DNA of 34,046 bases from Nitrospirota bacterium (lineage in GTDB: Bacteria > Nitrospirota > Thermodesulfovibrionia > Thermodesulfovibrionales > JdFR-85): positions 1-34,046 of the forward strand of contig WFMM01000014.1 in NCBI GenBank assembly GCA_015484595.1, given 5' to 3'. Of this stretch, positions 3 through 17,245 are shown piece after piece. Numbering within the stretch: the first letter of the stretch is position 1; every line of letters starts with the position of its first letter. Below the pieces are notes generated by a model. That model did not search any database and was not told the origin of the DNA. It was given only the letters and a program-made list of their open reading frames with translations. The translations under genes and the position numbers were made by a program.

Positions 3-3000
3 TATGAGATACCTGTAAGCACGCTTACAGGTGGATTAAGTATGAACCAGGGTGAGTGGTACTGGCTTAAGCCAAAGCTTCAGTCATCAGGTGGGACAAA
101 GATATACGACAAGGGTGAGATAATGTTTCTCTACCAGAATGGTCCAACCTGCTCAGCCACAGCACCAACTGACCTTACTGCAACCAATGTCCAGTCAACT
201 CAGGTTGACCTTCAGTGGACTGCAGACTGCACAAACAACGACACATACAATGTCTATCGTGACGGCACACAGATTGCCTCAGGAATTGCCTGTACTGCAG
301 GCACCATGACATACACTGATACCACGGTATCAGCAAATACATCCTATACATACACGGTTCGTGGCTACAACAACACTGATGCCTGTGAAAGTGGTGATTC
401 AAATGCAGTAAATGTCACCACACCAAACTGCACGGAGGCAACACCTTCATCCATCATCTGGAACGGCACAAACACGGCAAGTGGTAACTTCAATGGTTCT
501 TCCTTCGTAACAGCAACAGACATCCAGAATCTGGAGTTCAAGATTACGCAAACGACAACAGGTAGCGGAGGATGTTTAGCAACAGGTGATTATCAGCAAT
601 CATCAAATACAGACAGACTTATAACATCCGTAAACGGCACACCATCAATGCACTTTAATATAGGAGACCAGATAACCATTGAATTTCATACAGCAACGAG
701 GTTTGGCGATGCAACTCAGGCATTAAATATCAAGGATTCGCAAAATAACAATATCGTTAATAACCAGCCAATGAACGAACAGCAACAGGGCACAGAGTGG
801 GTATATACTTACACTTGGAATACAAATGGTGCAAGTGCTGATTTTTATCAGATCGAGGTTAAGGACAAAGCAGATAATGACCCGAAGGCTGGAGTTACCA
901 TTGTGCTTGGTAATCCATCAGTTGGGATGTATTTCTATAGTGATGCAGGATACACAAACCAGACCGACACCTTTGCAGATGGTGACACAGTATATGTGGA
1001 GGTAAGGCTTAGTGGTAATGAGTCTACAATAAAAAAATCAGAGCTTAACAACTGGTACAACACAAAGGTTAATACAACCAATAATATAGACCAGACAGGT
1101 AAAACCTTCAGGTATCACTTTACTGTTAACTTTGCAAATGCTGGTATATCAAATGGCGATTGGGGTTATGTAAAGTGGCAGGGTAATACTGTTAACGATA
1201 GGTTTGAAAGAGCGATATATCGTAATGACAGCGGCTGTACAACGACAACTGAGACAGTCCTTCTCGACTGGAATCCTGACCCACAGGAGGCATCAGGAGT
1301 TCTGGTGGATGGTCAGCAGTATAACCTCTATGCAAGAGGTCAGGACCCAGAGTGTGGTACCATGTACTATGGTGACCCATCGGTTGCAAACACCACCGCT
1401 GACGGTGTTGCCCAGCAGTTTACATGGAGTGCCTGCACTGACCCTGACCCAACGACCGGTGTAACCGTCTCTCCTGCTTCTAACTCTACAGTAAACGGAA
1501 CAGTCACGGTTTCAGCTACCATTTCAGGTGAGACCACACCAGATGCAGGCTCAGCAACGGTGACCATCACAGGAAGCACGGCCTGTGATGTAACCTCTGC
1601 AGCTATGACATGGAACGCCACCTCAGGTGCGTGGGAGTACACCTGGGATACATCAGCCTGTGGCTCTGTAAACCCTGAATCTGGTATCACCATACAGGTT
1701 AACTACACTGACCCTGACTGCGGCACGGTTACCACAGGCACATCTAATAACATAACAATTGACAACCGTTGTCCAGCCACAGCACCAACAGACTTAAGCG
1801 GAACTGCGGCAAGCTCAAGTCAGGTTGACCTAACATGGACAGCTGATTGCACAGTAAACGATACTTACAATATCTATCGTGACGGCACACAGATTGCCTC
1901 AGGAATTGCCTGTACAGCAGGCACAATGACTTACAGCGACACCACAGTAGCACCTAACACCACTTATAACTACACTGTTCGTGGTTATGATAATGCACAG
2001 GCCTGTGAAAGCGGTGATTCAAATACTGCCACAGTAACCACACCAAATGGTCCGGTATACAACATAACATCCTGCACAGACTGTCACGGTCAGCCACCTG
2101 CTGAGGGTGCCACGAGGTCAGCAGGAACAGGTCAGCTTGGTGGTGGACAGGTAATCGGCTCACACTCAATCCATGTTACACAGCTTGGCCTTGCCTGCAC
2201 CGAGTGTCATGTGGACAATGGAACAAACCTCAGCCATCGTAATGGTGTAATCAACTTTGTAACGATTCGTGGTGGCTCCTATTCACCATCTGCTTCAGAG
2301 ACAGACCTTTCAAACACAGGTGAGCCGCTTCAGGACATAGAAGACGGCACAGGGCTTGGTACCTGTAATAACACTGGTTGTCACGGTGTGCAGTCACCAA
2401 CCTGGGGGACAACAACAAACAATCCAACCTGTTACAAGTGTCACGGCACACAGGCTAATGGAAACAATGCCCCAAGCTCAGCCTCAGATACACCAAGCGG
2501 CAATGCTAACAAGGTGGGAGCCCACCAGGCACACCTGCAGGCAATTGACAACTACAGTTCACCAATACAGTGCTCAGAGTGCCACACCGTGCCGAATGCA
2601 CCAATGGATGCAGGACACCTCTACGACGGCACAAACGACACCACCCTCATTCAGGCTGAACTTAACTTTGGCACACTGGCAACGAACAATGGTGCACCTG
2701 GCACATACAATTATTCAACACAGACCTGTGATGTTTACTGCCACAACGAGCAGTACTTTAAGAACGCTTGGGGTACAGGCACAGCACCCACATGGAACGA
2801 TTCAACCTATTTAAATGGCACGCAATCAGACTGTTCCAAATGTCATGGCGACCCACCTGGTGGCGGGCATCCATCGGTTGCACAGAACGCCTGCTCACAG
2901 TGTCATAATCATGTAAATGCAAACGGTAATGGATTTATTGATCCGACACTTCATGTAAACGGAAAGGTTGAGGGCGGGACTTGTACAACCTGTCATAACG

Positions 3001-4217
3001 GTGTCCCCACAGGTGCCACTTATGTAACGAGGGATGTAGTTGGCTCAGACTTTACACAGGCATCACGACATGTTATGGGTGGAACCGTGACGAACTGGGA
3101 TTGTATAGTCTGCCATGCTGAAGGTGATGCAAATCAAGCAGTAAACGGAAAAGTCTCCACTGACAGTGTGCTTCATCACAATGGAGGCACGCCTGTGGTT
3201 GACCTGAGAAATGTGGACAACCCAACACAGGTAGTGGTGCAGTGGGATAAAAACAACATAACCCCTGCAATGGAGAAAGGTCTTGATGATTTCTGCATGA
3301 CCTGTCACGACTCAAACGGTGCAAGCGGAATTGCAGTTGCATCAACGAACGACAGGATCACGCTTACACCAACCACTCAGGAGGCAATGGCACCCTTTAA
3401 TGACTCCGACGGTGGATACGGTGCTCTAAATGCAAGTGGGCCAACAGGGCATGCTACGAGGCCACATGTGGTGGATGTATATGACCAGTTCAACCCTGGA
3501 ACCTACACATGGCCAGCAGGTGATGGAACCATGCCAGGTGGCTTTACAGGCACGAATTACAATGGTAATGCCTCCCAGCACGCAGTAAGGGGTCCGAGAT
3601 ACAGCACGACGAATGCTAACTGGAACACCTGGGTAAACAGGACACTTAAGTCTGGGCAGAACCTTGCCACCTCAAGGGAGACCTCACAGCTACACTGTGC
3701 AGACTGTCATACGGTTGACCAGAATGCACACGGTGGTGCAAATGTCTTCATGCTTACAGCACAGGGCACGAGCAATACTGGCTCTGCAATAGATAAGACC
3801 TGCACCCAGTGCCATAGTTCAAATGTGTACCTTGGCGGTACAGGTGGCAGATGGGATCATAAAAATGAAGGTGATGTATGGCGGAGTCCTAACCTTGCAT
3901 CCTATTGGGACAACTCACAGTGTCTGCTCTGTCACGGTGGTGGTTCAGGCGACTTCAACGGCATGCCTGAACAGTATGGTGGTATTCACGGTATGAACAG
4001 CAATGATCCTCGTTCAAACACTCCACCATACAGGTTCATGGGTGGTTCCTATATCTATCCAAATCCTGGCGGTAACGGAAGCTGGAACTCTGCTGCTACC
4101 AGTACAACATGCTATGGAAGCTCATCGACAACTAAGTGGGCAAGCTGTAACAAACATGATGGCAGCACAGGTAGCAAAGGCTGGACATACAACTACGGAA
4201 GACCTACGACATACTAA
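3..4217 (+). CDS. multiheme c-type cytochrome with fibronectin-III domains, 5' end outside window
   Basis: The reading frame is open to the left edge, and residues before the first Met (position 42) continue a beta-rich domain without a signal peptide, so the true start lies upstream. Numbering from the Met at 42, FN3-like domains lie at about 33-127 and 580-675, with beta-sandwich-like Cys-containing segments between them. The C-terminal half, from residue 678 to 1298, holds 14 heme c attachment motifs: 12 CxxCH, one CxxxCH (CDVYCH) and one CxxxxCH (CNNTGCH, followed by CYKCH). The CxxxxCH...CxxCH pairing is the pattern known from Geobacter-type surface cytochromes. The final Cys pair (CYG...SCNKH) lacks a CH and probably forms a disulfide. 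The likely role is periplasmic or extracellular electron transfer, with the FN3 domains acting as adhesive or spacer modules. A terminator follows the stop directly. The family call is firm; the electron acceptor is unknown. Confidence 0.93.
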   Translation, partial: YEIPVSTLTGGLSMNQGEWYWLKPKLQSSGGTKIYDKGEIMFLYQNGPTCSATAPTDLTATNVQSTQVDLQWTADCTNNDTYNVYRDGTQIASGIACTAGTMTYTDTTVSANTSYTYTVRGYNNTDACESGDSNAVNVTTPNCTEATPSSIIWNGTNTASGNFNGSSFVTATDIQNLEFKITQTTTGSGGCLATGDYQQSSNTDRLITSVNGTPSMHFNIGDQITIEFHTATRFGDATQALNIKDSQNNNIVNNQPMNEQQQGTEWVYTYTWNTNGASADFYQIEVKDKADNDPKAGVTIVLGNPSVGMYFYSDAGYTNQTDTFADGDTVYVEVRLSGNESTIKKSELNNWYNTKVNTTNNIDQTGKTFRYHFTVNFANAGISNGDWGYVKWQGNTVNDRFERAIYRNDSGCTTTTETVLLDWNPDPQEASGVLVDGQQYNLYARGQDPECGTMYYGDPSVANTTADGVAQQFTWSACTDPDPTTGVTVSPASNSTVNGTVTVSATISGETTPDAGSATVTITGSTACDVTSAAMTWNATSGAWEYTWDTSACGSVNPESGITIQVNYTDPDCGTVTTGTSNNITIDNRCPATAPTDLSGTAASSSQVDLTWTADCTVNDTYNIYRDGTQIASGIACTAGTMTYSDTTVAPNTTYNYTVRGYDNAQACESGDSNTATVTTPNGPVYNITSCTDCHGQPPAEGATRSAGTGQLGGGQVIGSHSIHVTQLGLACTECHVDNGTNLSHRNGVINFVTIRGGSYSPSASETDLSNTGEPLQDIEDGTGLGTCNNTGCHGVQSPTWGTTTNNPTCYKCHGTQANGNNAPSSASDTPSGNANKVGAHQAHLQAIDNYSSPIQCSECHTVPNAPMDAGHLYDGTNDTTLIQAELNFGTLATNNGAPGTYNYSTQTCDVYCHNEQYFKNAWGTGTAPTWNDSTYLNGTQSDCSKCHGDPPGGGHPSVAQNACSQCHNHVNANGNGFIDPTLHVNGKVEGGTCTTCHNGVPTGATYVTRDVVGSDFTQASRHVMGGTVTNWDCIVCHAEGDANQAVNGKVSTDSVLHHNGGTPVVDLRNVDNPTQVVVQWDKNNITPAMEKGLDDFCMTCHDSNGASGIAVASTNDRITLTPTTQEAMAPFNDSDGGYGALNASGPTGHATRPHVVDVYDQFNPGTYTWPAGDGTMPGGFTGTNYNGNASQHAVRGPRYSTTNANWNTWVNRTLKSGQNLATSRETSQLHCADCHTVDQNAHGGANVFMLTAQGTSNTGSAIDKTCTQCHSSNVYLGGTGGRWDHKNEGDVWRSPNLASYWDNSQCLLCHGGGSGDFNGMPEQYGGIHGMNSNDPRSNTPPYRFMGGSYIYPNPGGNGSWNSAATSTTCYGSSSTTKWASCNKHDGSTGSKGWTYNYGRPTTY
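253..295 (+). repeat. 43-bp exact internal repeat, copy 1 (FN3 domain 1)
   Basis: These 43 bases are identical to 1873-1915, inside the two FN3 domains of the multiheme cytochrome, 1620 bp (540 codons) apart. The flanking codons already differ at synonymous positions, so the identical core suggests recent duplication or gene conversion of the module. Confidence 0.9.
1873..1915 (+). repeat. 43-bp exact internal repeat, copy 2 (FN3 domain 2)
   Basis: Second copy of the 43-base identical block at 253-295; it encodes the YRDGTQIASGIACT strand region of the second FN3 domain. Confidence 0.9.
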
Positions 4218-4396: not shown

Positions 4397-4426
4397 TTGA
4401 TACATTGGATATAGGTATATTATAAT
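4397..4426 (+). promoter_or_regulatory. sigma70-type promoter of the RHH/PIN operon
   Basis: TTGATA at 4397-4402 and a perfect TATAAT at 4421-4426 with an 18-bp spacer. Transcription would start near 4433, about 25 nt before the antitoxin start codon. Confidence 0.75.
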
Positions 4427-4440
4427 GTATACATATACAT
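4425..4440. promoter_or_regulatory. palindromic operator candidate overlapping the -10 and start site
   Basis: A perfect inverted repeat, ATGTATA-CA-TATACAT, begins inside the -10 box and covers the predicted start site. RHH antitoxins typically repress their own operon from short palindromes in this position. The binding assignment is inference. Confidence 0.6.
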
Positions 4441-4457
4441 CATTTATGGAGGAATGT

Positions 4458-4727
4458 ATGGCTGTTGCAGAAAAGAGGACACAGGTTTACTTTCCTGAGG
4501 ACTTGTATAAGCGTCTTAAAAGGCGAGCAAAGAAAGAGGGAAAGTCAGTTGCAGCCCTTATCAGGGAGGCTTCAGAAGAGTACCTGAAAAAAGAAGAGAG
4601 AGAGATTGACTGGGAAAACGACCCTCTTTTGAAGGCTATCGGGTTCTGTAAAGTAGATGTGGATGACCTGTCTGTCAATCATGACCATTATCTCTATGGT
4701 GCACCTAAAAGGAAGGCAAAGCATTGA
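4458..4727 (+). CDS. ribbon-helix-helix antitoxin (VapB/CopG-type)
   Basis: An 89-residue protein. I chose the ATG at 4458 because GGAGGA lies 4 nt upstream and the RHH strand (TQVYFPEDLYKRLKRRAKKEGKSV) then follows at the usual distance; the ATGs at 4425 and 4446 lack a ribosome site, and 4425 lies inside the -10 box. Residues about 6-50 form the DNA-binding RHH fold. The C-terminal part (LSVNHDHYLYG) resembles the toxin-neutralising tail of VapB-type antitoxins. Its stop codon overlaps the toxin start by one base (TGATG), so translation is coupled. It is probably repressed by its own complex through the palindrome at 4425-4440. Confidence 0.88.
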   Translation: MAVAEKRTQVYFPEDLYKRLKRRAKKEGKSVAALIREASEEYLKKEEREIDWENDPLLKAIGFCKVDVDDLSVNHDHYLYGAPKRKAKH

Positions 4728-5128
4728 TGGTCTTTTTTGATACCAGTGCTGCAGTGGCACTTTTTCTTGAAAAGGACAGGAATCACGAAGAGGCAAAAAC
4801 ACTTGTTCAAAAGGCGATCCAGAAGAGACAGATATTGTTGATAACTGACTATATATTTGATGAGACAATAACAACAATGCTTGCCCGTGCTGGTCACAGC
4901 GATGCAGTTAAGGCAGGCAGATTTCTTCTTGTAAGTTCTATTGTAAAAATAATCTATCTTGACACTGAATTGAAGCTTCGTGCATGGGAGTATTTCAAGA
5001 GGCACAAAGACAAAAACTTCTCCTTCACTGACTGCACCAGTTTTGTCCTTATGAAAGAGATGGGACTCAGACATTACATTGCCTTTGACGAGCATTTCAG
5101 CCAGGTTGGGTTTACTATATTTGAATGA
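4727..5128 (+). CDS. PIN-domain ribonuclease toxin (VapC-like)
   Basis: A 133-residue single PIN domain. The ATG at 4727 overlaps the antitoxin stop; an in-frame TTG three bases earlier is less likely. The acidic metal-binding set expected of PIN nucleases is visible: D5 in the opening FFDTS strand, the Glu of the DYIFDET helix, and the FTDCTSF acidic motif late in the protein, followed by the typical tail in which AFDEHFSQVGF occupies the usual 'D..F' position. The family acts as an Mg2+-dependent endoribonuclease, commonly on tRNA or rRNA; the target here cannot be read from sequence. It looks intact, so the pair is probably functional. A small hairpin follows the gene. Confidence 0.9.
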   Translation: MVFFDTSAAVALFLEKDRNHEEAKTLVQKAIQKRQILLITDYIFDETITTMLARAGHSDAVKAGRFLLVSSIVKIIYLDTELKLRAWEYFKRHKDKNFSFTDCTSFVLMKEMGLRHYIAFDEHFSQVGFTIFE

Positions 5129-5279: not shown

Positions 5280-6755
5280 ATGAATAAATTAACCTATAAG
5301 TTGATATTTACATTATGTATTACATCTATCCTTTTTATTTCATCCTGCACAAATAGGGGGTTGAAAAAGAAGTACCCTGTCCTTGGAAGAGAGCCCATAA
5401 AGGATGTGTTTGTTTGTGAAGACCACTCCGAAGTCCTTACGGAATGGGCAAAAAGGGGATTCAGGGATATTACGGTAATACATGTTGATGCCCACGATGA
5501 CCTTGGATTCATTGACGAGGGGAAAATTAAAGGGATTAAAAAACTGATTGATGAAAAAAACTGGCAGGAGCTTGAGAAGGAAAGAGACAGAGGAGCAAAG
5601 GGGCTTTACACGCTTGCCAACTTTCTCTACGCAGCAGCACACACAGGCATTGTTAAAAAGGTTTACTGGGTAATGCCCTTTGATTTCTTCCTTCACGCTG
5701 GAGGTGGAGAAAAACTGAGAAATTTCCTGAAGATAGGTGGAGGGTCTTTGATGAATCCCCTTGAGGTTGAGGCAATGAAGATGGAGTTTGGCTGTCTTAC
5801 GGGAACACTAAAGGGAATAGATGTAAGTATCTGTGGACCTGAAACATTACCCAGAATAGGCATACCCGTAGTTCTTGATATAGATACTGATTTTTTTCCT
5901 ACATATTCTCTTGAAAGAAACTGGACGAAGCTTCAGGGTATCAAGGCATTCTTTGATGCCCTTTACAATAGAAACATAATGCTCAGATATGTGGATATTA
6001 CCTATTCAGTGAATAAGGGGTATCTGAAACCCATCCATCGCTGGCTCGTTGATGTAATAAAGGACATCCTTCAAAAACCGGATATCATAAAACAGCCCTC
6101 TCCTCCAGAGTTGTGGGCTTTTCTTGATGTAGTTGACTATGCCCTGATAGCTGGAAAACCCGGAGAGGGAGAAAAGACCCTGAAAGAGGCACTTAAGAAG
6201 TATCCAGAAAATCTTTCCATCAGGGCTTACGATGCTTACTACAGTCTCGTTTACAGAGGGGATTACGATTCAGCACTTAAAAAGGCAGTGAAGCTCTGCA
6301 AAGAAGACAAGAGGTATTATTATCTCCTTCCCTTTCTTGGAAAAGTGATTAAAGACAGCAAGTATCCTGAAAGGGCTGAGCCCTTTTACAAACAGGCTTT
6401 AGAGCTGGTGCCAGATAACTTTTACTTTAACAGGGAATACGGCAGGTATCTGTTAAAAGTGAAGCGATATGATGAGGCTATGGTTTATTTAAAAAAGGCT
6501 GTCTCCCTTGAGGATGATATGTATGTATGGCTCAGGCTTGGTGATGCCGCCTATGAGGCAGGCCGTAAAAAGGAGGCTGCAGGGTTTTACGAAAGGGCCC
6601 TCCTTGAATACGACCCCCTTGTAGGTATTAATCTGAGCAAGGAAAACGGAAGAAGTATAAAGAGGATGATGGAGTATTTCAGGTCTAAAGGAAGAGACGA
6701 CCTGGCACAGAAGGCTGGTATGATATTGCTAACAGAGGGTGGAAGACTGAGGTGA
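5280..6755 (+). CDS. lipoprotein with UPF0489 (arginase-like) domain and C-terminal TPR repeats
   Basis: A 491-residue protein with a lipoprotein signal: hydrophobic residues 8-20 and lipobox ISSC with Cys23. Residues about 40-260 match the UPF0489 pattern: VCEDHSEVL, the arginase-type metal motif HVDAHDDL (H68, D70, H72, D74), NFLYAAAH...VKKVYWVMP (114-133) and DIDTDFF (D200, D202, D204). UPF0489 has an arginase/deacetylase-like core and, as I recall, includes peptide arginases that convert Arg to ornithine in ribosomal peptides. Residues about 285-490 are TPR-like helices. The expected location is the outer face of a membrane, which is unusual for this family. It opens the operon, and its TGA overlaps the GTG of the ResB gene. 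Substrate unknown; the domain call is good, the activity inferred. Confidence 0.8.
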   Translation: MNKLTYKLIFTLCITSILFISSCTNRGLKKKYPVLGREPIKDVFVCEDHSEVLTEWAKRGFRDITVIHVDAHDDLGFIDEGKIKGIKKLIDEKNWQELEKERDRGAKGLYTLANFLYAAAHTGIVKKVYWVMPFDFFLHAGGGEKLRNFLKIGGGSLMNPLEVEAMKMEFGCLTGTLKGIDVSICGPETLPRIGIPVVLDIDTDFFPTYSLERNWTKLQGIKAFFDALYNRNIMLRYVDITYSVNKGYLKPIHRWLVDVIKDILQKPDIIKQPSPPELWAFLDVVDYALIAGKPGEGEKTLKEALKKYPENLSIRAYDAYYSLVYRGDYDSALKKAVKLCKEDKRYYYLLPFLGKVIKDSKYPERAEPFYKQALELVPDNFYFNREYGRYLLKVKRYDEAMVYLKKAVSLEDDMYVWLRLGDAAYEAGRKKEAAGFYERALLEYDPLVGINLSKENGRSIKRMMEYFRSKGRDDLAQKAGMILLTEGGRLR

Positions 6756-8143
6756 GCCTTGCTGGGGGCATCTATAACAGGTTTAAGAGTGTCAAGACCA
6801 CTGCTTTTATATTTGGCTCTTTGATTGTGGTTTATTTTGCCGGTCTCGTCATACCGCAAAAGACACTTTTTTCTTCTTACAGTGAATATCAGACATGGCT
6901 CCAAAAAAGCATCTTTTACAGGCTCTTTGACCTTCTTGGACTTACGGACATATATCTGTCGCCCATCACTATCGGTCTGCTCGTGTTGTTTTTCCTGAAT
7001 CTGCTTGTTGTGGTTGGCGAAAGGACAAAGCTGGTGATGAGGAAGGTCTATTTAACAGCTAAGCCGAGTTTAATGGGGCCCGAGGAGATAAAGGGCAGAC
7101 AGTCACATCTAAGTATAGAGACCACTCTTAATCGAGAGGCTGTCTTTGATAAGGTCCTCAGGATATTGAGAAGGAACAGGTGGAAGCCACTCAGAGTAGA
7201 CACTACAGGGATGGCTTTTTTAATTAAGAACAGGTTATCTCCTGTGGGGTTTTTGCTATTCCATCTTAGTTTTCTGCTCTGTCTGATAGGTGGATTGCTA
7301 ATTACATATACCCGTTTTTATGGTTATCTGACCATAACAGAGGGTCAGAGACTCGGAGATGCAAGGCCACACATAACGAGGATAATAAAAAAACCTAAGA
7401 TATTTAAGGAACTACCCCATTTTGGTTTGAGCCTTATAAGGGTTGAGCCTCAATACCAGAAGGATGTTCCCACTGACCTGTTTGTCTATCTTGATGTATT
7501 ATACAGGGGGAAGGTAAAAAGGGAGGTTCTTAAGGTGAACGAACCTGTAAAAAGAGGACCTCTCAGTCTTGTGGTTCAGGACATCTGGCTTGCCCCATTG
7601 ATGGTGGTAAGAGATGACAGGGGAAGAATGATAGACGGTGCCTATGTTGCACTGAATCTGCTTCACGGGCAGGAGGATTCCTTCTGGTTTGACAGCTTGA
7701 AGGGCTACAGGTTTTATGCCATATTCTTTCCTGATTATGTGGAGCGTGACGGTGTGGAGACCACAAAGAGCATTGTGATAAGAAACCCTGCCCTTCATCT
7801 GAGGGTGGAAAGGGATGGCAATGCGGTTGCAGAGGGCACCTTAAAACCCAAAGAGTCTTTGAGGTTTGATAGATACAGCATATCCTTTCAGGGATACCGT
7901 TACAGCGTGTATCTTAATGTGATAAGAGAATACGGCAGGGTGCCACTTATAGCAGGGTTTGTGCTTGCCCTTGCAGGATTACTTATGAGATTGATTTTCT
8001 ATCAGAAAAGGCTCTGGGTGGCTGTTTCAGGAGCTGGAGAAAACTCAGTGGTGCTGATTTATGGAAGAAGTGAGTATTTTCATTTGAGTTTTAAAGAGGA
8101 ACTTAAGAGGCTTTCTGAAAGGATAGGAGATGCCCTGAGATGA
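6752..8143 (+). CDS. resB: ResB/Ccs1-type cytochrome c biogenesis protein
   Basis: A 463-residue membrane protein starting with GTG that overlaps the previous stop (GTGA). Topology is typical of ResB: TM1 near residues 17-36, TM2 near 68-90, TM3 near 163-187, a large periplasmic domain of about 200 residues, and a last TM near 393-412. The N-terminal stretch FKSVKTTAFIFGSLIVVYFAG and the VGFLLFHLSFLLCLIGG helix are characteristic. ResB works with CcsA/ResC as the System II heme exporter and holocytochrome c synthase at the periplasmic face; the CcsA partner lies at 13054. The abundant CxxCH proteins in the window are plausible clients. No defect is visible. Confidence 0.87.
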   Translation: MSLAGGIYNRFKSVKTTAFIFGSLIVVYFAGLVIPQKTLFSSYSEYQTWLQKSIFYRLFDLLGLTDIYLSPITIGLLVLFFLNLLVVVGERTKLVMRKVYLTAKPSLMGPEEIKGRQSHLSIETTLNREAVFDKVLRILRRNRWKPLRVDTTGMAFLIKNRLSPVGFLLFHLSFLLCLIGGLLITYTRFYGYLTITEGQRLGDARPHITRIIKKPKIFKELPHFGLSLIRVEPQYQKDVPTDLFVYLDVLYRGKVKREVLKVNEPVKRGPLSLVVQDIWLAPLMVVRDDRGRMIDGAYVALNLLHGQEDSFWFDSLKGYRFYAIFFPDYVERDGVETTKSIVIRNPALHLRVERDGNAVAEGTLKPKESLRFDRYSISFQGYRYSVYLNVIREYGRVPLIAGFVLALAGLLMRLIFYQKRLWVAVSGAGENSVVLIYGRSEYFHLSFKEELKRLSERIGDALR

Positions 8144-8691
8144 TAAGGAATCTCTTTGTAACACTGATTATACCGGTTTTGCTTGCCTTTGGAGTCTGTT
8201 ATCTTCAGGCCCCATCTGGCGGGGCCTATCTCAGGTACCACCTGGGTTTATACGACCTTAAGAAGGAGGAAAAACTGATAAAGAAGTCCATAAAGCAGTT
8301 TAACATAGACTACGCAACGGTGTTTAACACAGGAGGCACAACCTATGTGATTGATGAGTACCCTGCTGCAAATCTCGTAAAAAGAAGGACCTATCAGGAG
8401 GCAAACATCTGGGCGAGACAGAAGATGGTGCTCGTTTACGACAGGGATAAGACCACCATTGAAGGCATCAGGTTTTACAGCCCCTTCAGGGCAGTGGTTG
8501 TGGCAAAGGAACTCTGGTTTTTGAACTTTCAGGACATAAAAACCAGGGATTATCTGAGCCCCCTTAAGGCAGACAAGATCAGGGTGAGATACCTGATGAA
8601 GAAGGTGCCTGGTAAGGGCTGGATCGTGCAGGAGTACGAGGTTTACTCTGACACTGAAAAGGTAACCACAGAGGTGGACAGACCATGGTAA
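8140..8691 (+). CDS. membrane-anchored periplasmic protein of unknown function
   Basis: 183 residues; the ATG overlaps the ResB stop (ATGA) and the 3' end overlaps the next gene by 7 nt, so it is part of the same translationally coupled operon. A single N-terminal hydrophobic segment (about residues 4-22) would anchor a soluble extracytoplasmic domain. The C-terminal part is rich in beta-type strands and charged residues (FYSPFRAVVVAKELWFLNFQDI; YEVYSDTEKVTTEVD). I see no CxxC, heme or catalytic motif and do not recognise the family. Its position between two ResB-like genes suggests an accessory subunit of that complex. Confidence 0.8.
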   Translation: MIRNLFVTLIIPVLLAFGVCYLQAPSGGAYLRYHLGLYDLKKEEKLIKKSIKQFNIDYATVFNTGGTTYVIDEYPAANLVKRRTYQEANIWARQKMVLVYDRDKTTIEGIRFYSPFRAVVVAKELWFLNFQDIKTRDYLSPLKADKIRVRYLMKKVPGKGWIVQEYEVYSDTEKVTTEVDRPW

Positions 8692-9608
8692 AGTCAGTGA
8701 TAAGGGGACTCTGGGTATTCGTGGTCTTTTTTATGGTTTTTAAGCTTTCGGGGCTTTTTACAGAGGTGCCTTCAGGTTTTTTCAGGACCCTTTACAGCCC
8801 ATTCGTAATTGTTCCGATTTTGTTGATTTTCCTTCTCAGGGTTTATCAGTTTCTTAAGTGCAGGCGACCTTCTCACCTGTTGGTTGACCTTGGAATACTT
8901 ACACTGCTTGTGGGCCTTGTAATCGGGTATCTTTACGCTGATTCAAAGGAGATCGTGATAACGGTAGGACAGGTCTACAGGACAGACAGGGATTATCCAC
9001 TGAAGGAGATATTATACAAGGGACCAAAGGCGAAAGATAGCTGGTTTTTGATAAAATTCAATCGCGCCTTTGCCTCTTTCAGTAAAGATGGACGGAGATT
9101 AAAGGGGCTTAAGGCAGAGTTTGACCTCTACCGAGACCTAAGGGGAAAAGTGAAAAAACTCGTTCTCAAAAAGGGATTTTTAAGGCCCGGACCTGGTGGG
9201 ATGCTCTTTGGCATAAGGGACTTTGGTTACTCCATGCATTATCTTTTTAGCTTTGAAGGTGCAGCTGATGAGGCCTTTGTCGCCCTTGAGCTTTTTCCAC
9301 CTGGGAAAGAGGATTACTTCAGACTGGTCTTTTCACCTCATACCTACTACATAAGGTATCTGCCACAGAAGAAGGAAAAGCCCATCGGGCTAAGGATTGC
9401 AAGAAACAAGGACCTGATTTATGACAGTTTCATCGGGTTTCATGAGCCTGTGAAGTTTGAAAAGGCAACCCTTACCTTCACAGAGGCAAGGAAGTGGACT
9501 CGGCTTATCGTAATCAACGACATGGGGCTCTATGTTGACATCCTCTCTGTGGTCTTTTTTGTTGTGGGTGCCATATTAAAGACGAAAGAGAGAATCCCTG
9601 ATGCGTAG
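8685..9608 (+). CDS. second, shorter ResB-like membrane protein
   Basis: 307 residues with ResB-like topology: TMs near 7-25, 38-57 and 64-84, a periplasmic domain from about 90 to 275, and a C-terminal TM near 280-300. The junction KWTRLIVINDMGLYVDILSVVFF closely follows the ResB signature in which a short basic strand and an N/D-x-G step lead into the final helix. It is about 150 residues shorter than the ResB at 6752 and much diverged, so it is probably an ancient paralogue with a specialised role rather than a spare copy. It overlaps the next gene by 8 nt. The ResB relationship is inferred from layout and motif. Confidence 0.7.
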   Translation: MVKSVIRGLWVFVVFFMVFKLSGLFTEVPSGFFRTLYSPFVIVPILLIFLLRVYQFLKCRRPSHLLVDLGILTLLVGLVIGYLYADSKEIVITVGQVYRTDRDYPLKEILYKGPKAKDSWFLIKFNRAFASFSKDGRRLKGLKAEFDLYRDLRGKVKKLVLKKGFLRPGPGGMLFGIRDFGYSMHYLFSFEGAADEAFVALELFPPGKEDYFRLVFSPHTYYIRYLPQKKEKPIGLRIARNKDLIYDSFIGFHEPVKFEKATLTFTEARKWTRLIVINDMGLYVDILSVVFFVVGAILKTKERIPDA

Positions 9609-10311
9609 GAAAGCTCTGGTGGCTCAGATATTGATATTTGTTTTTCTCTGTTTTTCTTTCTTTTTAATAGACAGCCACTCAAGGTCAGTAAGGAAATACC
9701 CCCGAAAGAGCTCACTCAGATTTTACAGGGTAAGCACTGGAAAGGATGTTTACAGGGTTTACAGGATGCTAAAACTGAAGGGTGCTACGGTTGTTCATCT
9801 CAGTAATACCCCTGGTATGGAAGAGTTCTATCCATCTGAGGAAACAGAGCCAATAGGTTATCCCATCCCTGTGAGGGATGTGTTACCCCTTTATGAAAAG
9901 GGACTTAACTCTGAGAACTTTCTCTTTATAGCCTCAAGGGCATCAATGCTCAGGAAGGTTTATAACATCCTGCCTCCCTCAGTGTTCAGACTGAAAAAAG
10001 ACAGGCTTAAGGGAGAATTTGAATACACTGTAAGTGGTAATAGTGTTGATGGTTTTGTCAGGGACATACATCAGATAATCACGACCCTTGAGGCTGTTAA
10101 GCGGATTGATGAGCCTGTGGTGATAAACATTGATGCCGGTTACTTTGTTGAGGCACAGGACCCAATGAGGACAGTGGTGGAGATAATAAAGCATTTCAGG
10201 GACATAAGGGCGGTTGTGTTAATAGACTCTGTTGACAGGGATTATGTGAGTGCTGAGATGAGGAAAAAACTCGACCTTATGCTTCAGGGATTAGAGAGGG
10301 CGCTTGGATGA
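9601..10311 (+). CDS. membrane-anchored, degenerate UPF0489-like protein
   Basis: 236 residues with an N-terminal anchor (about 7-23). By eye it parallels the UPF0489 domain encoded at 5280: NFLFIASRASMLRKVYNILP (106-125) against NFLYAAAHTGIVKKVYWVMP, and EPVVINIDAGYF (171-182) against IPVVLDIDTDFF. The metal motifs are lost: the HVDAHDDL position reads HLSNTPGM (66-73), and DIDTD reads NIDAG. It is therefore probably a pseudoenzyme paralogue, for example a partner or scaffold for the intact copy. No homology search was possible; the alignment is mine. It overlaps its neighbours by 8 and 4 nt, so it is co-translated with them. Confidence 0.7.
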   Translation: MRRKALVAQILIFVFLCFSFFLIDSHSRSVRKYPRKSSLRFYRVSTGKDVYRVYRMLKLKGATVVHLSNTPGMEEFYPSEETEPIGYPIPVRDVLPLYEKGLNSENFLFIASRASMLRKVYNILPPSVFRLKKDRLKGEFEYTVSGNSVDGFVRDIHQIITTLEAVKRIDEPVVINIDAGYFVEAQDPMRTVVEIIKHFRDIRAVVLIDSVDRDYVSAEMRKKLDLMLQGLERALG

Positions 10312-11564
10312 ACGGAAAAAAGAGGCTTTATCTGATAGTTTTTGGCATCTTTCTTCTTGGTCTTCTCTTAAGGGTTTATGGTATCACCTCGCAGCCACCG
10401 ACATCTGATGAGGTGGCCTCTGCTTACGCTGCGGAAAACTACATCAGGCATGGCATCTTCGGTCAGATAATGTGGTATCATCCCCAGTTAAGAAACATAC
10501 TGATTTATATTTCAGCCCATATCTCAGGTGGATACGATGCGTGGGGGCTTAAGGCTGCATCTCTGCTTACCGGGAGTTTGTCTGTTGTCCTGCTTGCTGC
10601 CCTGGCATACAGTCTAAGTGGCAACATGGTAGTTGCCTGGCTTTCTGCTTTTTTTCTTGCCGTGGACCCGCTTCACATAGCGCTTTCAAGAGAGGCTGTT
10701 CAGGCAGCAATGACGCCGTTTTTTATTCTGCTTGGCGTGCTTTTCTCAGTAGAGGGTTTAAAGAGGGAGAGGCTTTTGTTTCATTATCTGGCAGGAGTCA
10801 GTTTTGGACTTGCAACGGCCAGCAAGTGGCATGGACTCTTTCCATGGGCAATGATGGCTCTTTTTGCCCTGTACGATAGAGTTAAAAAGGGAGAGTCCAA
10901 AGGCCTGGATCAATGGATAGGGCTTTTAAATGCCTATCTCCTCGTGCCTGTTCTGATATACCTCATTTCCTATCTCCCCTGGCTTAACAGAGGCAATGAC
11001 CTTATGGATTTTTTAAGGTTTCAGATGTTCTTAGTAAAGAGACAGATTTATCACCGAGGACCTGCCTATGCCGAGGCTTTTATGAGCCATCGTGCATGGC
11101 AGTGGTTTGTCTGGCCAACGGCATGGGTGGATTTTGTATTCCTAAACGGCAGGCCCTATCTTAACATTGCCATGGGCAATCTGCTGGTGTGGTTCCTTAC
11201 GATCCCCTCAACAGTGTTCTTTTTTTACAGGTGGAAAAAACAGGGAGGCAGAAACAGGCTGGTCCTCCTTCTGGTATTTTTAGTGTCCTACCTTCCTCTG
11301 GTCTTTACCACCCGCGGGATATGGGTGTTTTCAGCCACATCGGTTATCCCCTTTGCCTTTTTAATTATTGCCTGGAGCACGGGGATGCTTATCGAATCGG
11401 GCAGGCTGAAAAGGGCTACGCTAATGGTGTATATCTGCCTGGTCTTTCTGCTTTCTCTGGTGATGTATCCCATGTCCACCTTCAGGGCCTATGAGCATAC
11501 CTATCTAAAGCCTATCGTTGAGCATTACAACCCCCATGGAAAGAGATGGAGTTTAAGAAGGTAG
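10308..11564 (+). CDS. PMT/GT39-type membrane glycosyltransferase (C-superfamily)
   Basis: 418 residues, about 10-11 transmembrane helices. The first loop has the acidic TSDE motif (D34, E35) typical of the catalytic site of ArnT/PMT-like enzymes, followed by AAENYIRHGIF and, later, LATASKWHGLFPW, a common GT39/PMT_2 landmark. Such enzymes transfer a sugar from a polyprenyl-phosphate donor to protein or lipid on the outer side of the inner membrane. The GT2 enzyme at 16535 resembles polyprenyl-phosphate sugar synthases and could supply the donor. The gene overlaps the previous one by 4 nt and the following radical SAM gene by 19 nt. Acceptor unknown. Confidence 0.83.
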   Translation: MNGKKRLYLIVFGIFLLGLLLRVYGITSQPPTSDEVASAYAAENYIRHGIFGQIMWYHPQLRNILIYISAHISGGYDAWGLKAASLLTGSLSVVLLAALAYSLSGNMVVAWLSAFFLAVDPLHIALSREAVQAAMTPFFILLGVLFSVEGLKRERLLFHYLAGVSFGLATASKWHGLFPWAMMALFALYDRVKKGESKGLDQWIGLLNAYLLVPVLIYLISYLPWLNRGNDLMDFLRFQMFLVKRQIYHRGPAYAEAFMSHRAWQWFVWPTAWVDFVFLNGRPYLNIAMGNLLVWFLTIPSTVFFFYRWKKQGGRNRLVLLLVFLVSYLPLVFTTRGIWVFSATSVIPFAFLIIAWSTGMLIESGRLKRATLMVYICLVFLLSLVMYPMSTFRAYEHTYLKPIVEHYNPHGKRWSLRR

Positions 11565-12946
11565 TCCTTATAAACCCTGCAAACCCCTCCTCAAGGGGAA
11601 CAAACCGCTCAACCCTTTACCCGCCAATAGGTCTTGCCTATCTGGCAGCAGTGCTTGAAAGAGAGGGTTTTGATGTAAAGGTGATTGATGCCTCGGTAAA
11701 AAACCTCAGTCCACGGGATGTGGTTGCGGAGTTGTCAAGAGACTTTCCAGACTTGGTGGGATTAAGTGTAAATGTCATTAACGCCTCAGGGGCAGTTGAG
11801 ATTGCCCGGGAGTTAACAAAAGGACAGGGCATTAAAGTGGTGCTTGGTGGGCCACTTGCAAGCACCTGTTACGAAGAGATTTACCAGAGGGTGAAGCCTT
11901 ACTGCATCGTGATAGGAGAGGGTGAGCAGAGTTTCTTGAGGGTCTGCCGTGGTGAGCCCCTTGAGGAGATTGAGGGGATATGCTATCTGGATAAAGGCTC
12001 TTTTTTGAGAGTCAATCCACCCTCGAAGCCAATTGAGGACCTCGACCAGCTTCCCCTTCCTGCCTATCATCTTCTTCCTGAACTCAGGCTCTACCGTTCA
12101 AGGGCAAGAAGATACCCTGTAGCACCTGTTATCACCTCAAGGGGATGCCCCTTTGGGTGTGCCTATTGTAATTCTTCAATATTTGGCAGGCGTTTCAGGG
12201 CAAAGAGTCCGGAGGCAGTGGTTGAGGAGATAGAGTTTCTTGTAAGGAGGTTCGGGGTTCGCCAGATTGACATCGTTGATGATAACTTCACGCTTGAAAT
12301 TCAAAGGGCAGAAAGGATACTTGAGTTGATAATTAAAAGGGGTCTTAATATAGCCATTAACCTTCAAAACGGTATCAGGGCTGACAGGCTTACCCCTGAA
12401 CTGGTAAGGCTTATGAAGAGGGCAGGGGTGTATAAGGCATCCATAGGTGTGGAGTCTTCAAGCCCTGAAGTGCTAAGGGCAATTGGTAAGAGACCCAGGC
12501 TTCAGAATATAAAGCTTGCAGTAAAATGGTTCAGAGATGAAGGCATCTCAACGGCTGCATTTTTTATCATCGGGCTTCCTGATGACACTGAGGACAGTAT
12601 CCTTCAGACCATAGAATTTGCTGTGAGGCTTGACCCCGTGGTTGCGGTCTTTTCAAGGTTTATCCCCCTTCCTGGAACCCCTTACCACGAGCGGCTCAAG
12701 AAAGAGGGGCTTCTCAGGATAAACCCCTGTGAGGGATTCTCAGGTGGTTTTTTCACGCCCACTGGTTACTTTAAACACCCTGTGTTAAGGGATGAGCAGA
12801 TTGACAGGCTTCACAGGATGGCCTACAGGAGGTTTTATCTGAGACCAAAGAAGATTGCTGAAATACTGAGAGATATGGGTTCATTAAAAGAGATCGGCTG
12901 GCTCCTGAGAAGTAGTCTCAATATCATAACAGAGCTTGGGATATAA
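11546..12946 (+). CDS. B12-binding-domain radical SAM enzyme (BchE-like class)
   Basis: 466 residues. Residues 1-140 form a Rossmann-like B12-binding domain (KVVLINPANPS; LVGLSVNVINA; VVLGGPLAS; IVIGEGEQSF) without the DxHxxG cobalt-ligand motif, as is common in this class. The radical SAM core has the 4Fe-4S motif CPFGCAYC (C201, C205, C208) and FDIVDDNFTL-type, IGVESSSPEVL and FIIGLPDDTED segments. Related enzymes methylate or cyclise unactivated carbons in lipids, porphyrins and peptides. The start sits 19 nt inside the previous gene behind GGAAAGAG. Substrate unknown; a shared substrate with the second such enzyme at 15108 is possible. Confidence 0.88.
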   Translation: MEFKKVVLINPANPSSRGTNRSTLYPPIGLAYLAAVLEREGFDVKVIDASVKNLSPRDVVAELSRDFPDLVGLSVNVINASGAVEIARELTKGQGIKVVLGGPLASTCYEEIYQRVKPYCIVIGEGEQSFLRVCRGEPLEEIEGICYLDKGSFLRVNPPSKPIEDLDQLPLPAYHLLPELRLYRSRARRYPVAPVITSRGCPFGCAYCNSSIFGRRFRAKSPEAVVEEIEFLVRRFGVRQIDIVDDNFTLEIQRAERILELIIKRGLNIAINLQNGIRADRLTPELVRLMKRAGVYKASIGVESSSPEVLRAIGKRPRLQNIKLAVKWFRDEGISTAAFFIIGLPDDTEDSILQTIEFAVRLDPVVAVFSRFIPLPGTPYHERLKKEGLLRINPCEGFSGGFFTPTGYFKHPVLRDEQIDRLHRMAYRRFYLRPKKIAEILRDMGSLKEIGWLLRSSLNIITELGI

Positions 12947-13053: not shown

Positions 13054-13905
13054 ATGAACACAAGGCTTATAGAGGATATACTTATATGGGGTTGCATATA
13101 TCTTTATGCATCGGCAAGTATATTGCTCCTTACGGGCTTTGTATTTAATAAAGAGAAACTCCTAAGGATTGCTGGTTATCTTATTATCCCTGCCTTCTTT
13201 GCACATACCGTCGTCTTTGCAATGAGGTGGGCAAGAACGGGTTACTTCCCAGCAAACGGAGAGCTTGAAAACGCCCTCACAGGTGGATGGTTTGCAATCG
13301 GTTTTACTGTTTATCTTTTTATAAAGAACCGTTCACTTTCCGGTGTAGCGCTTTTTACAGTGCCTGCAACACTGCTCTTCCTTGGTTATGGAATCATGAA
13401 GGCACCAAACCCCTTGCCACTGGTTGCATCACTTAAAAGTAGCTGGCTAATAGTGCATGTTGCCTTTGCACAGCTTGCCTTTGGAGCCTATGCAATCGCA
13501 TCAGGTATGGGGTTACTTTATATACTGAAGGATAACAATGAGAAGAAGGAAGTAAAGAGGCCCTTTTATCAGAGATTCCCTGGCCTTGATGTGATTGACG
13601 AGCTGATGTTTAAGTTCGTGGTCTATGGCTTCATTGCAGAGGCGATAATGATAGTGGCAGGTGCCATATGGGCTAAGGACCTCTGGGGGAGTTACTGGGG
13701 GTGGGACCCTGTGGAGGTCTGGTCCCTGGTTTCATGGCTCCTTTACGGCTTTACCATTCATCTAAAGGTTACACTGGGATGGAAGGGAAGAAAACTGGCC
13801 TGGATTGTCATGGTCCTTATACTGACCGTTATAATTACATACTGGGGAATAAACATCGTGATTGAAAACTCAAGGCATGTCTTTGGTGTAGTATCTCAGG
13901 GATGA
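13054..13905 (+). CDS. ccsA: CcsA/ResC-type heme handling protein of System II cytochrome c maturation
   Basis: 283 residues, about eight TM helices. The tryptophan-rich WWD-type heme-binding segment is WGSYWGWDPVEVWSL (211-225), located in a periplasmic loop, and candidate axial His residues lie at H51, H135, H236 and H275. Length and ending (SRHVFG) are typical for CcsA/ResC. It binds heme from the cytoplasmic side and, with ResB, ligates it to CxxCH. The two ResB-like genes are just upstream (6752, 8685); placing a radical SAM gene between them is unusual. Its stop overlaps the next ATG (ATGA). Confidence 0.92.
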   Translation: MNTRLIEDILIWGCIYLYASASILLLTGFVFNKEKLLRIAGYLIIPAFFAHTVVFAMRWARTGYFPANGELENALTGGWFAIGFTVYLFIKNRSLSGVALFTVPATLLFLGYGIMKAPNPLPLVASLKSSWLIVHVAFAQLAFGAYAIASGMGLLYILKDNNEKKEVKRPFYQRFPGLDVIDELMFKFVVYGFIAEAIMIVAGAIWAKDLWGSYWGWDPVEVWSLVSWLLYGFTIHLKVTLGWKGRKLAWIVMVLILTVIITYWGINIVIENSRHVFGVVSQG

Positions 13906-15107: not shown

Positions 15108-16538
15108 ATGAAAAGGATTTTATTTATATACCCGCCTTCCCGTCCGATCTTAAGAGAGGACAGATGCCCTGTTCCATCAGGTAACCCTGTTATGTCTCCC
15201 CGACTGCCACCTACTGACCTTATGTATCTGGCATCTATTGCTGAGAGTCGTGGTTATGAGTGCATGATAAGGGATTACTCAGGTAAGCCAGATGGAATAA
15301 GTCTCTTTATTAGTGATTTAAAGAGCTTTCGACCTTGTGTGCTCTTTGTGAATGTAACAACCCCGACATTTATAGATGATATTAAGTCATGTGTTACTGC
15401 AAGGTCTATACTGCCAGAGCTCAGGATAATAATTAAAGGTGCACATCTTTTAAGGTACGATGTAGAGGTCATGATGGATGTGCCGGAAGTGGACATTGTT
15501 GTCAGGGGTGAGGCGGAGTTTGCATTCGGAGAGATCCTTGCTGATAAACCTTTGAAAGATATTAAGGGCATTACATGGAGGGAAAATGGCAGGGTCTTAA
15601 GAAACCCTGATAGGGACCATGAAAGGGATGATGTAGATAGTCTTCCACCGCCATCACGCCATCTTGTGAATAACAGCCATTATAAAAGGCCAGACAATGG
15701 GATGCCTCTTGGTGTGATAAGGGTCTCCAGGGGATGTCCTCATGGATGTTTTTTTTGCCTTGCCACGCCGGTTTATGGCAGAAAGGTAAGAATGAGGTCG
15801 GTGCAGTCAGTGGTTGATGAGATATCAAAATGCATAAGAGATTATGGAATAAACAATTTTATATTCTGGTCTGACCTTTTTAATGCATCTTCACAGTGGG
15901 TATCATCACTTTGTGAGGAAATAATAAGAAAAGGGATAAAGATTCAATGGTCTGCAAATATAAGGGCAGACAGATTCAATGAAGAAATGGCTTTGTTGAT
16001 GAAAAGAGCAGGCTGTGAGCTTTTGAGTGTGGGAGTTGAAAGCGGTAGTCAGGATATACTGAATCGCGTAGGTAAAAATATCGCCCTTGAAGATTATGTA
16101 AGAGCCTTTGTAATTATGAAAAAAACGGGGATAAGAAGCATAGCCTATTACATACTTGGCTTGCCTTGGGAGAGTAGGGAAAGCGCAAATAAGACAATGG
16201 AGTTTTCAAGAAGACTTGATAGCGACTTTGCAAACTTTTATGTTTTTGCTCCACTGCCTGGTACAGCCGGCTATGAATATGTTATTAATGAGGCACTGGC
16301 AGAGGAGTCAGCACTGATAGGTGGGGCGTTAAAGAATGCCTACTACAGTGCCGTCTGTTCAGGGCATTACATGAGCAAAGATGAAATAAATGCTCTGAGG
16401 AAAGAGGCTATAAGGGCATTTTATTTCAGGGCAGGATATGCTATCAAGAGGCTAAGGGAAATAGATTCCTTTGATGAGCTGAAGAACTATATTAGAGCTG
16501 TTTTTTCGATGTTGAAGATGCTTCCGACGAGGTTATGA
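15108..16538 (+). CDS. second B12-binding-domain radical SAM enzyme
   Basis: 476 residues. N-terminal B12-binding-like domain (ILFIYPPSRP; VLFVNVTTPTF; IIIKGAHLL; IVVRGEAEFAF), again without DxHxxG. The radical SAM core has CPHGCFFC (C210, C214, C217), FWSDLFNAS, SVGVESGSQDIL and YYILGLPWESRES. It is not a close copy of the enzyme at 11546, so it probably performs a different step. The ATG at 15108 follows directly from the conserved opening strand; no ribosome site is seen. The 3' end overlaps the GT2 gene (ATGATG), so the two are coupled. Confidence 0.88.
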   Translation: MKRILFIYPPSRPILREDRCPVPSGNPVMSPRLPPTDLMYLASIAESRGYECMIRDYSGKPDGISLFISDLKSFRPCVLFVNVTTPTFIDDIKSCVTARSILPELRIIIKGAHLLRYDVEVMMDVPEVDIVVRGEAEFAFGEILADKPLKDIKGITWRENGRVLRNPDRDHERDDVDSLPPPSRHLVNNSHYKRPDNGMPLGVIRVSRGCPHGCFFCLATPVYGRKVRMRSVQSVVDEISKCIRDYGINNFIFWSDLFNASSQWVSSLCEEIIRKGIKIQWSANIRADRFNEEMALLMKRAGCELLSVGVESGSQDILNRVGKNIALEDYVRAFVIMKKTGIRSIAYYILGLPWESRESANKTMEFSRRLDSDFANFYVFAPLPGTAGYEYVINEALAEESALIGGALKNAYYSAVCSGHYMSKDEINALRKEAIRAFYFRAGYAIKRLREIDSFDELKNYIRAVFSMLKMLPTRL

Positions 16539-17245
16539 TGTTGTTGGGCAAGAAGGTAGTAGTCATTATGCCGGCTTACAATGCAGAGTTGACCCTGAAA
16601 AGGACTGTAGAAGAAGTGCCAGATGGAATAGTGGACGGTATTGTGGTTATTGACGATGCTTCAAAGGATTTAACGGTTGAAATAGCAAGGCAACTGGGAT
16701 TGGATGTTATCATTCATTCCAGTAATCTGGGGTATGGTGCAGCTCAAAAAACAGGCTATAAAAGGGCGCTTCAGAAAGGAGCAGATATTATTATAATGGT
16801 TCATCCTGATTATCAGTACTCACCCAATCTGATTCCTGCTATGGCTTCTATGGTGGCCTCTGGCCATTACGATATGGTGCTTGCCTCAAGGATATCTGGA
16901 GGAGGGGCTTTAAAAGGTGGTATGCCACTTTACAAATATCTGGCCAATAGATTTTTGACCTTTGTGCAGAATTTGGTTTTAGGGATTAAGTTGAGTGAAT
17001 ATCATACAGGATACAGGGCTTACAGCAGGAGACTACTTGAGAGTATTGATTTTGAGGCCAATTCAGATGGCTTTCTCTTTGATAACCAGATAATACTGCA
17101 GGCTGTAAAGGCTGGTTTCAACATAGGTGAAATAAGCTGTCCTACCCGATATTTTCCCGAGGCATCTTCGATAAACTTTTATGAAAGTATTAGGTATGGC
17201 TTAGGGGTGTTGAAGATAACATTAAAGTTTCTATTTCAGAAGTAG
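16535..17245 (+). CDS. family 2 glycosyltransferase, polyprenyl-phosphate sugar synthase type
   Basis: 236 residues with a GT-A fold: VVVIMPAYNAELTLKRTV, GIVVIDDASKD, then SSNLGYGAAQKTGYKRAL and the metal-binding region IIIMVHPDYQYSP in place of a classical DxD. The later segments (LASRISGGG, LSEYHTGYRAYSRRLL) match dolichyl/polyprenyl-phosphate hexose synthase-like members. It has no C-terminal TM pair, so it is likely peripheral at the cytoplasmic side. In the cluster it could make the lipid-linked donor for the PMT-type enzyme at 10308. It is the last gene of the cluster. Confidence 0.85.
   Translation: MMLLGKKVVVIMPAYNAELTLKRTVEEVPDGIVDGIVVIDDASKDLTVEIARQLGLDVIIHSSNLGYGAAQKTGYKRALQKGADIIIMVHPDYQYSPNLIPAMASMVASGHYDMVLASRISGGGALKGGMPLYKYLANRFLTFVQNLVLGIKLSEYHTGYRAYSRRLLESIDFEANSDGFLFDNQIILQAVKAGFNIGEISCPTRYFPEASSINFYESIRYGLGVLKITLKFLFQK

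What the first reader, a model, noticed from the sequence alone, without database searches (positions are those of the whole stretch)
9601..10311. Pseudoenzyme-like paralogue of the UPF0489 arginase-like protein in the same operon
The product parallels the domain encoded at 5280 (NFLFIASRASMLRKVYNILP against NFLYAAAHTGIVKKVYWVMP; PVVINIDAGYF against PVVLDIDTDFF), but the metal-binding HVDAHDDL reads HLSNTPGM and DIDTD reads NIDAG. An active and a degenerate copy, both membrane-attached outside the cytoplasm and co-translated in the same operon, suggest an enzyme-partner pair. The alignment is by eye.
Basis: inference. Interest (0 to 1): 0.66.

Follow-up and report, generated by a model that had tools for sequence, protein, structure and literature searches.

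The report
Dead arginase domain paired with glycosyltransferase
A small membrane-anchored protein that has the shape of an arginine-cutting enzyme but has lost its metal site is, in almost every genome that has it, encoded directly beside a sugar-attaching membrane enzyme, often near genes for giant haem proteins; this suggests a helper for decorating electron-carrying proteins, not a partner of the intact enzyme copy in its own operon.

Summary
The 9601-10311 product is homologous to the UPF0489 domain at 5280 (profile-profile 99.5%, E 6e-23). Its confident model (pLDDT 84.9) has the crystallised peptide arginase OspR as best PDB match. The metal ligands are gone from it and from all 43 family members examined, while 5280 keeps all six.

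The "enzyme-partner pair" reading does not generalise. The dead family is one old clade (100/99), not a recent copy. Of 46 other genomes that have it, only 9 also have a UPF0489-TPR protein, and where that protein sits in the same ResB/CcsA cluster it is usually dead as well; the window is the exception. In 42 of 43 copies the adjacent gene is instead a PMT-type GT-C glycosyltransferase, nearly all with the catalytic-type Asp.

The module lies near giant multihaem cytochromes and CcsA-type haem lyases more often than control regions do.

Best explanation: a periplasmic, catalytically dead arginase-fold subunit of a dedicated glycosyltransferase, probably binding the acceptor polypeptide. The gene pairing is shown; the mechanism is inferred. 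No Pfam or NCBIfam family covers it.

The parts
9601..10311 (+). Metal-less arginase-fold membrane-anchored protein ('psi'), 236 aa
9604..9684 (+). N-terminal membrane anchor helix of psi (residues 2-28)
   Evidence: AF2 secondary structure H2-28; a hydrophobic 19-mer is present in 43/43 family members
9730..9765 (+). psi position of arginase motif I (EDH in the 5280 product, EEH in OspR), reads VSTGKDVYRVYR: ligand His absent
9796..9819 (+). psi position of the DxHxD motif, reads HLSNTPGM: ligands absent
10126..10146 (+). psi position of the DID motif, reads NIDAGYF: one Asp of two kept
10308..11564 (+). PMT-type GT-C glycosyltransferase, the conserved partner gene (ATGA overlap with psi); catalytic-type Asp34 kept
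   Evidence: Pfam PMT 7.6e-14; adjacent in 42/43 loci; Asp in 41/42
5280..6755 (+). UPF0489 / peptide-arginase-like lipoprotein with C-terminal TPRs, complete metal site
5418..5426 (+). 5280 product motif I, Glu47-Asp48-His49
   Evidence: aligned with EEH of OspR
5487..5501 (+). 5280 product motif II, DAHDD (residues 70-74)
5877..5885 (+). 5280 product motif III, DID (residues 200-202)
6752..8143 (+). ResB-like cytochrome c synthesis protein
   Evidence: Pfam ResB 1.8e-32
8140..8691 (+). 183-aa membrane protein of the cluster, no known family
   Evidence: homologues in the same clusters
8685..9608 (+). Membrane protein called 'ResB2' here; no Pfam match, relation to ResB inferred from position and layout
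13054..13905 (+). CcsA/CcsB-type haem lyase with WWD motif
   Evidence: Pfam 5.5e-35, NCBIfam TIGR03144 (below its cut-off)
16535..17245 (+). GT2 glycosyltransferase, candidate polyprenyl-phosphate sugar donor synthase
   Evidence: Pfam Glycos_transf_2 1.3e-23
3..4217 (+). Giant multihaem cytochrome with fn3 domain (open at the window edge), candidate substrate of the module
   Evidence: 12 CxxCH and 1 Cx4CH; Pfam cytochrome c7/c3, fn3

Best explanation
The 9601 gene encodes a membrane-anchored periplasmic protein whose single domain has the fold of UPF0489/peptide arginases but no metal site and so no arginase chemistry. It is the near-obligate partner of the PMT-type GT-C glycosyltransferase encoded directly after it. 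Proposed mechanism: a GT2 enzyme charges a polyprenyl phosphate with a sugar in the cytoplasm, the lipid-linked sugar is flipped, and the GT-C enzyme transfers it to a protein on the outer face of the inner membrane. The GT-C enzyme itself has little soluble part; the dead arginase domain supplies one and binds or presents the acceptor polypeptide, using the peptide-binding cleft inherited from peptide-arginase-like ancestors. The likely acceptors are the giant multihaem cytochromes encoded nearby, which the ResB/CcsA proteins load with haem in the same compartment. Shown: homology, fold, loss of metal ligands, membrane anchor, fixed gene pairing with PMT, enrichment beside giant cytochromes and CcsA. 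Inferred: physical complex, acceptor binding, identity of the acceptor and of the sugar.
For: Homology and fold: hhalign 99.5%, E 6.4e-23; AF2 pLDDT 84.9, pTM 0.79; Foldseek best PDB hits are peptide arginase OspR 8brp (E 3e-4, prob 1.00), then a plant arginase. No metal site in 43/43 family members. N-terminal membrane helix in 43/43. PMT gene adjacent, same strand, mostly 4-bp overlap, either order, in 42/43 copies from Nitrospirota and Geobacterales; two psi-PMT pairs near each other in L034 and in L091. GT-C Asp kept in 41/42 partners. Giant multihaem cytochromes near the module: Geobacterales 11/20 vs 0/20 control regions (p 1.5e-4), Nitrospirota 10/21 vs 2/20 (p 0.015; both control hits are small, 312-318 aa). 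CcsA near the module: 16/20 vs 0/20 and 10/21 vs 1/20.
Against: No psi-PMT fusion was found, and no complex could be modelled with the tools. Gene pairing does not prove contact. About half of the loci show no giant cytochrome in the stretch examined, and many lie in wider glycan or radical-SAM regions, so the acceptor could be another protein or a glycolipid. TM-scores to arginases are modest (about 0.5). Acceptor binding by the cleft is untested.
Confidence: 0.5

Rival explanations
1. Enzyme-pseudoenzyme pair: the dead 9601 domain forms a heteromer with the intact 5280 UPF0489 lipoprotein and caps or regulates its metal site, as MetCb does with MetCa in metformin hydrolase.
For: Same operon, same compartment, homologous folds; the precedent of MetCaCb (PMC11271267); OspR is a homodimer whose interface forms the substrate site (PMC10028609).
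Against: 37 of 46 other genomes with psi have no UPF0489-TPR protein; many genomes have UPF0489 without psi; in other genomes with a UPF0489 copy in such a ResB/CcsA cluster that copy is dead; the two clades are old and separate; the constant neighbour is PMT.
Confidence: 0.12
2. The psi-PMT module is a general envelope or secreted-protein glycosylation unit whose acceptor is not the cytochrome; the cytochrome and CcsA genes are neighbours only because these genomes cluster envelope and respiration genes.
For: About half of the loci lack a giant cytochrome gene in the stretch examined; B12-radical SAM, GT2, TPR membrane protein and SGNH genes nearby suggest wider glycan biosynthesis.
Against: Giant cytochrome and CcsA genes are enriched against control regions of psi-bearing genomes in both phyla.
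Confidence: 0.25
3. psi is a chaperone or stability factor for PMT, or keeps another ligand-binding activity in the altered pocket, and is not an acceptor-binding subunit.
For: The near-obligate pairing is equally explained by a stabiliser; an Arg sits in place of the motif II Ala in many members and could fill the empty metal pocket.
Against: The domain is a whole arginase-type core, more than a stabiliser needs; no direct test is available.
Confidence: 0.13

Closest known systems
Peptide arginases (OspR/FlmR, NCBIfam NF052474; PDB 8brp) and Pfam UPF0489 (PF12640)
   Same: Fold, order of secondary-structure elements, the NFLYAA--GI-KKVYW and DID-FF landmarks; best structural match of the psi model; the 5280 product keeps every ligand
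   Different: psi has no metal ligands, is membrane-anchored and periplasmic, lies beside PMT, and matches no curated family model
Metformin hydrolase MetCaCb (arginase-family enzyme plus metal-free subunit)
   Same: An arginase-family member that lost five of six metal ligands and was kept as a non-catalytic subunit (PMC11271267)
   Different: MetCb partners its own active paralogue, encoded next to it; psi sits beside a glycosyltransferase and usually has no UPF0489 relative of known active form in the genome
GT-C glycosyltransferases with extra extracytoplasmic domains (PMT/GT39; ArnT; EmbC and GT136 ORF12 with carbohydrate-binding modules)
   Same: A GT-C core using lipid-linked sugar, helped by an extracytoplasmic domain that engages the acceptor (PMC11127046)
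   Different: Here the extra domain would be a separate gene product with a dead arginase fold, a combination found in none of the sources searched

Membership tests
Peptide arginase / UPF0489 enzyme, 9601 product | Six metal ligands in three motifs (EEH, DxHxD, DxD) | tested here: not met
   At most one ligand kept; none of 43 family members has the DxHxD motif
Peptide arginase / UPF0489 enzyme, 9601 product | Match to the family model over its cut-off | tested here: not met
   No Pfam or relevant NCBIfam match
Arginase-type fold (superfamily level), 9601 product | Profile and fold similarity to peptide arginases | tested here: met
   hhalign 99.5% to the UPF0489 set; Foldseek 8brp E 3e-4, prob 1.00
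Peptide arginase / UPF0489 enzyme, 5280 product | Six metal ligands in three motifs | tested here: met
   EDH, DAHDD and DID align with OspR; profile E 7e-9 to 8brp
Peptide arginase / UPF0489 enzyme, 5280 product | Curated cut-off of PF12640 (27 bits) and NF052474 (350 bits) | tested here: inconclusive
   PF12640 27.7 bits in the genome search but 25.0 in hmmscan; NF052474 only 27.7 of 350
Peptide arginase / UPF0489 enzyme, 5280 product | Arg-to-Orn activity on a peptide | not testable with these tools
   Needs an assay
Enzyme-pseudoenzyme arginase pair (MetCaCb type) | Active and dead copies adjacent and co-occurring | tested here: not met
   37 of 46 psi genomes lack UPF0489-TPR; three genes lie between them in the window
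PMT-type GT-C glycosyltransferase, 10308 product | PMT Pfam match and the conserved first-loop Asp | tested here: met
   Pfam 7.6e-14 over cut-off; Asp34 in 41/42
PMT-type GT-C glycosyltransferase, 10308 product | Transfer of sugar to protein | not testable with these tools
   Needs mass spectrometry
System II cytochrome c synthesis cluster | ResB plus CcsA with WWD | tested here: met
   Pfam ResB 1.8e-32 and Cytochrom_C_asm 5.5e-35; WGSYWGWDP motif read in the sequence

The most novel reading that the evidence does not exclude
Nitrospirota and Geobacterales carry a dedicated machinery in which a two-gene GT-C glycosyltransferase, whose acceptor-binding subunit is a dead arginase domain, decorates giant multihaem cytochromes as a specialised ResB/CcsA synthase loads them with haem. 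In some of the same clusters a second arginase-fold protein, the UPF0489-TPR lipoprotein, is an active peptide arginase-like enzyme in one species and another dead subunit in others.
Probability: 0.35. Interest if true: 0.8.

Novelty: new variant of a known kind. Interest (0 to 1): 0.62.

Why it matters
It gives a likely function class, a partner and a testable mechanism to a family that has no entry in Pfam or NCBIfam. It suggests that an arginase-fold domain was recruited as the partner of a glycosyltransferase. It also points to glycosylation of giant multihaem cytochromes in Geobacterales and Nitrospirota, groups important for extracellular electron transfer, where two searches of the open literature found no paper combining these terms.

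Tried and rejected
Single-sequence searches of the 9601 product against Pfam, NCBIfam and PDB gave nothing useful; the link needed profiles. The A1 profile against PDB sequences gave only spurious hits to designed helical repeats. A genome-contig scan with the single sequence found nothing, and one with the wide alignment had no usable stretch. A possible psi-PMT fusion (a 669-aa frame in G732) turned out to be an intact UPF0489 with long TPRs. A Foldseek search of the 5280 model was swamped by TPR hits, so its arginase identity rests on the profile search. Considered and rejected: recent duplication of the 5280 gene (the tree splits the two sets); enzyme-partner pairing as the conserved function; chance neighbourhood with PMT (42/43).

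Full report
What is in the window. The finding lies in a 2.1-Mb genome (G000, contig C14) whose closest named relatives in these searches are mostly Nitrospirota MAGs. From 5280 to 12946 seven genes overlap end to start: a UPF0489-TPR lipoprotein (5280), a ResB-like protein (6752), a 183-aa membrane protein (8140), a second membrane protein called ResB2 here (8685), the 236-aa finding (9601, here 'psi'), a PMT-type glycosyltransferase (10308) and a B12-radical SAM protein (11546). A CcsA-type haem lyase (13054), further radical SAM proteins and a GT2 enzyme follow. Upstream lies a giant multihaem cytochrome (3-4217), separated from 5280 by a small toxin-antitoxin pair.

Is the similarity real? 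Yes. Single-sequence searches of psi find nothing, but homologues collected from 200 genomes of the class make a profile that finds the UPF0489 proteins at E down to 1e-16, and the reverse also works. Profile-profile comparison gives 99.5%, E 6.4e-23 over 188 columns. AlphaFold2 with an alignment of five psi sequences gives pLDDT 84.9, pTM 0.79. The best PDB match is the peptide arginase OspR (8brp, E 3e-4, probability 1.00), with a plant arginase third. The 5280 model (pLDDT 85.3) shows the same order of strands and helices in its N-terminal domain. The UPF0489 set matches OspR as the only significant hit in PDB (E 7e-9), with EDH, HVDxHDD and DIDxDFF aligned to the metal motifs of OspR.

The metal site. 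The 5280 product keeps all six ligands. psi keeps at most one, and none of 43 family members has the DxHxD motif. Loss of the metal site is therefore a stable property of the family. Conserved in most of the 43 are a Gly-Arg pair at 61-62 (Ala at 62 in the window itself), Ala111, Arg118, Pro125 and Glu171 (window numbering). In many members an Arg stands where the first Ala of DAHDD was.

Who is the partner? A tree puts psi in one clade (100/99) apart from the UPF0489-TPR proteins, so it is not a recent duplicate. Of 46 other psi genomes, only nine hold a UPF0489-TPR protein (G010, G066, G133, G134, G137, G169, G203, G429, G493; the remaining weak hits are psi itself or short fragments). And in the ResB/CcsA clusters of other genomes the UPF0489 lipoprotein has itself lost ligands (L034, L035, L041, L044, L089, L103, L107), the window copy being sister to that dead group (94/87). 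In contrast, 42 of 43 psi genes lie directly beside a PMT gene on the same strand, usually with a 4-bp overlap, in either order. In the one exception (G010) psi is on a short contig, while a PMT lies next to a UPF0489 gene at the end of another contig that may be its continuation (inference). The partner enzymes keep the GT-C Asp in 41 of 42.

Context. Giant multihaem cytochromes (at least 8 CxxCH, often with Cx4CH) lie in 10 of 21 Nitrospirota and 11 of 20 Geobacterales stretches with psi, against 2 of 20 and 0 of 20 control stretches from genomes that carry psi (p 0.015 and 1.5e-4). Both Nitrospirota control hits are small cytochromes of 312-318 aa. CcsA homologues lie in 10 of 21 and 16 of 20, against 1 of 20 and 0 of 20. 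Control stretches were taken at round coordinates, and the neighbour searches used window proteins as queries. UPF0489-TPR genes without psi nearby also often follow such cytochromes directly (L045-L049, L053). Both arginase-fold families are thus tied to similar cytochrome neighbourhoods by different partners.

Interpretation. Shown: fold, loss of the metal site, anchor, gene pairing with PMT, cytochrome context. Inferred: that psi and PMT form a complex, that psi binds the acceptor polypeptide, and that the acceptor is the giant cytochrome. The inference that psi binds polypeptide rests on its kinship with peptide arginases, which act on ribosomal peptides (PMC10028609), and on the small soluble part of the GT-C partner; GT-C enzymes elsewhere carry extra extracytoplasmic domains that engage the acceptor (PMC11127046). 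The family works like a non-catalytic subunit; it is not a member of the peptide arginases as enzymes.

Distribution. psi was found in 18 of 396 genomes of the Nitrospirota-type phylum sample, the window's own included, and in 29 of 141 genomes of the order of the Geobacter MAG L107, but hardly elsewhere in a sample of 395 genomes of that phylum.

Limits. The genomes searched are a sample. Complexes could not be folded. The cytochrome link is a neighbourhood statistic on about 20 loci per group, and stretches differ in length.

Noticed in passing
4425-5128 (+): A ribbon-helix-helix / PIN-domain toxin-antitoxin pair sits between the giant multihaem cytochrome and the UPF0489 operon.
   Followed up: no
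5280-6755 and loci L034, L035, L041, L044, L089, L103, L107: UPF0489-TPR lipoproteins inside ResB/CcsA clusters have lost metal ligands in seven other genomes, while the window copy is intact: a second family drifting to a pseudoenzyme in the same clusters.
   Followed up: partly
L045, L046, L047, L048, L049, L053: Intact UPF0489-TPR genes directly follow giant multihaem cytochrome genes at loci without psi, which hints at a peptide arginase-like enzyme acting on a cytochrome.
   Followed up: partly
3-4217 (+) and L107:1-345, L041, L044, L046, L088: The giant cytochromes share a C-terminal stretch after the last haem (R-F-GG---P---W---TCY---W--C--H----Y-RP--Y in the window) and many end in Tyr or Trp; it could be an export or anchoring signal.
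   Followed up: no
8140-8691 and 8685-9608 (+): Two membrane proteins without any Pfam family travel with ResB and CcsA in this cluster; they may be split or extra parts of the cytochrome c synthase.
   Followed up: no
11546-12946 and 15108-16538 (+): Two B12-binding radical SAM proteins related to HpnJ/BchE lie next to the glycosyltransferase genes; relatives recur near psi-PMT in both phyla.
   Followed up: no
L034:6616-8494 and 9155-11106; L091:7521-11349: Two psi-PMT pairs stand near each other, so pairs duplicate or assemble as units.
   Followed up: no
18854-19567 (+): A tandem fusion of two DUF190 (P-II-like) domains lies downstream of a CrcB-like fluoride channel gene (CrcB by reading only).
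   Followed up: no
24234-24770 (-): A NosL protein in a region of ABC transporter genes, with no nosZ seen in the window by reading.
   Followed up: no
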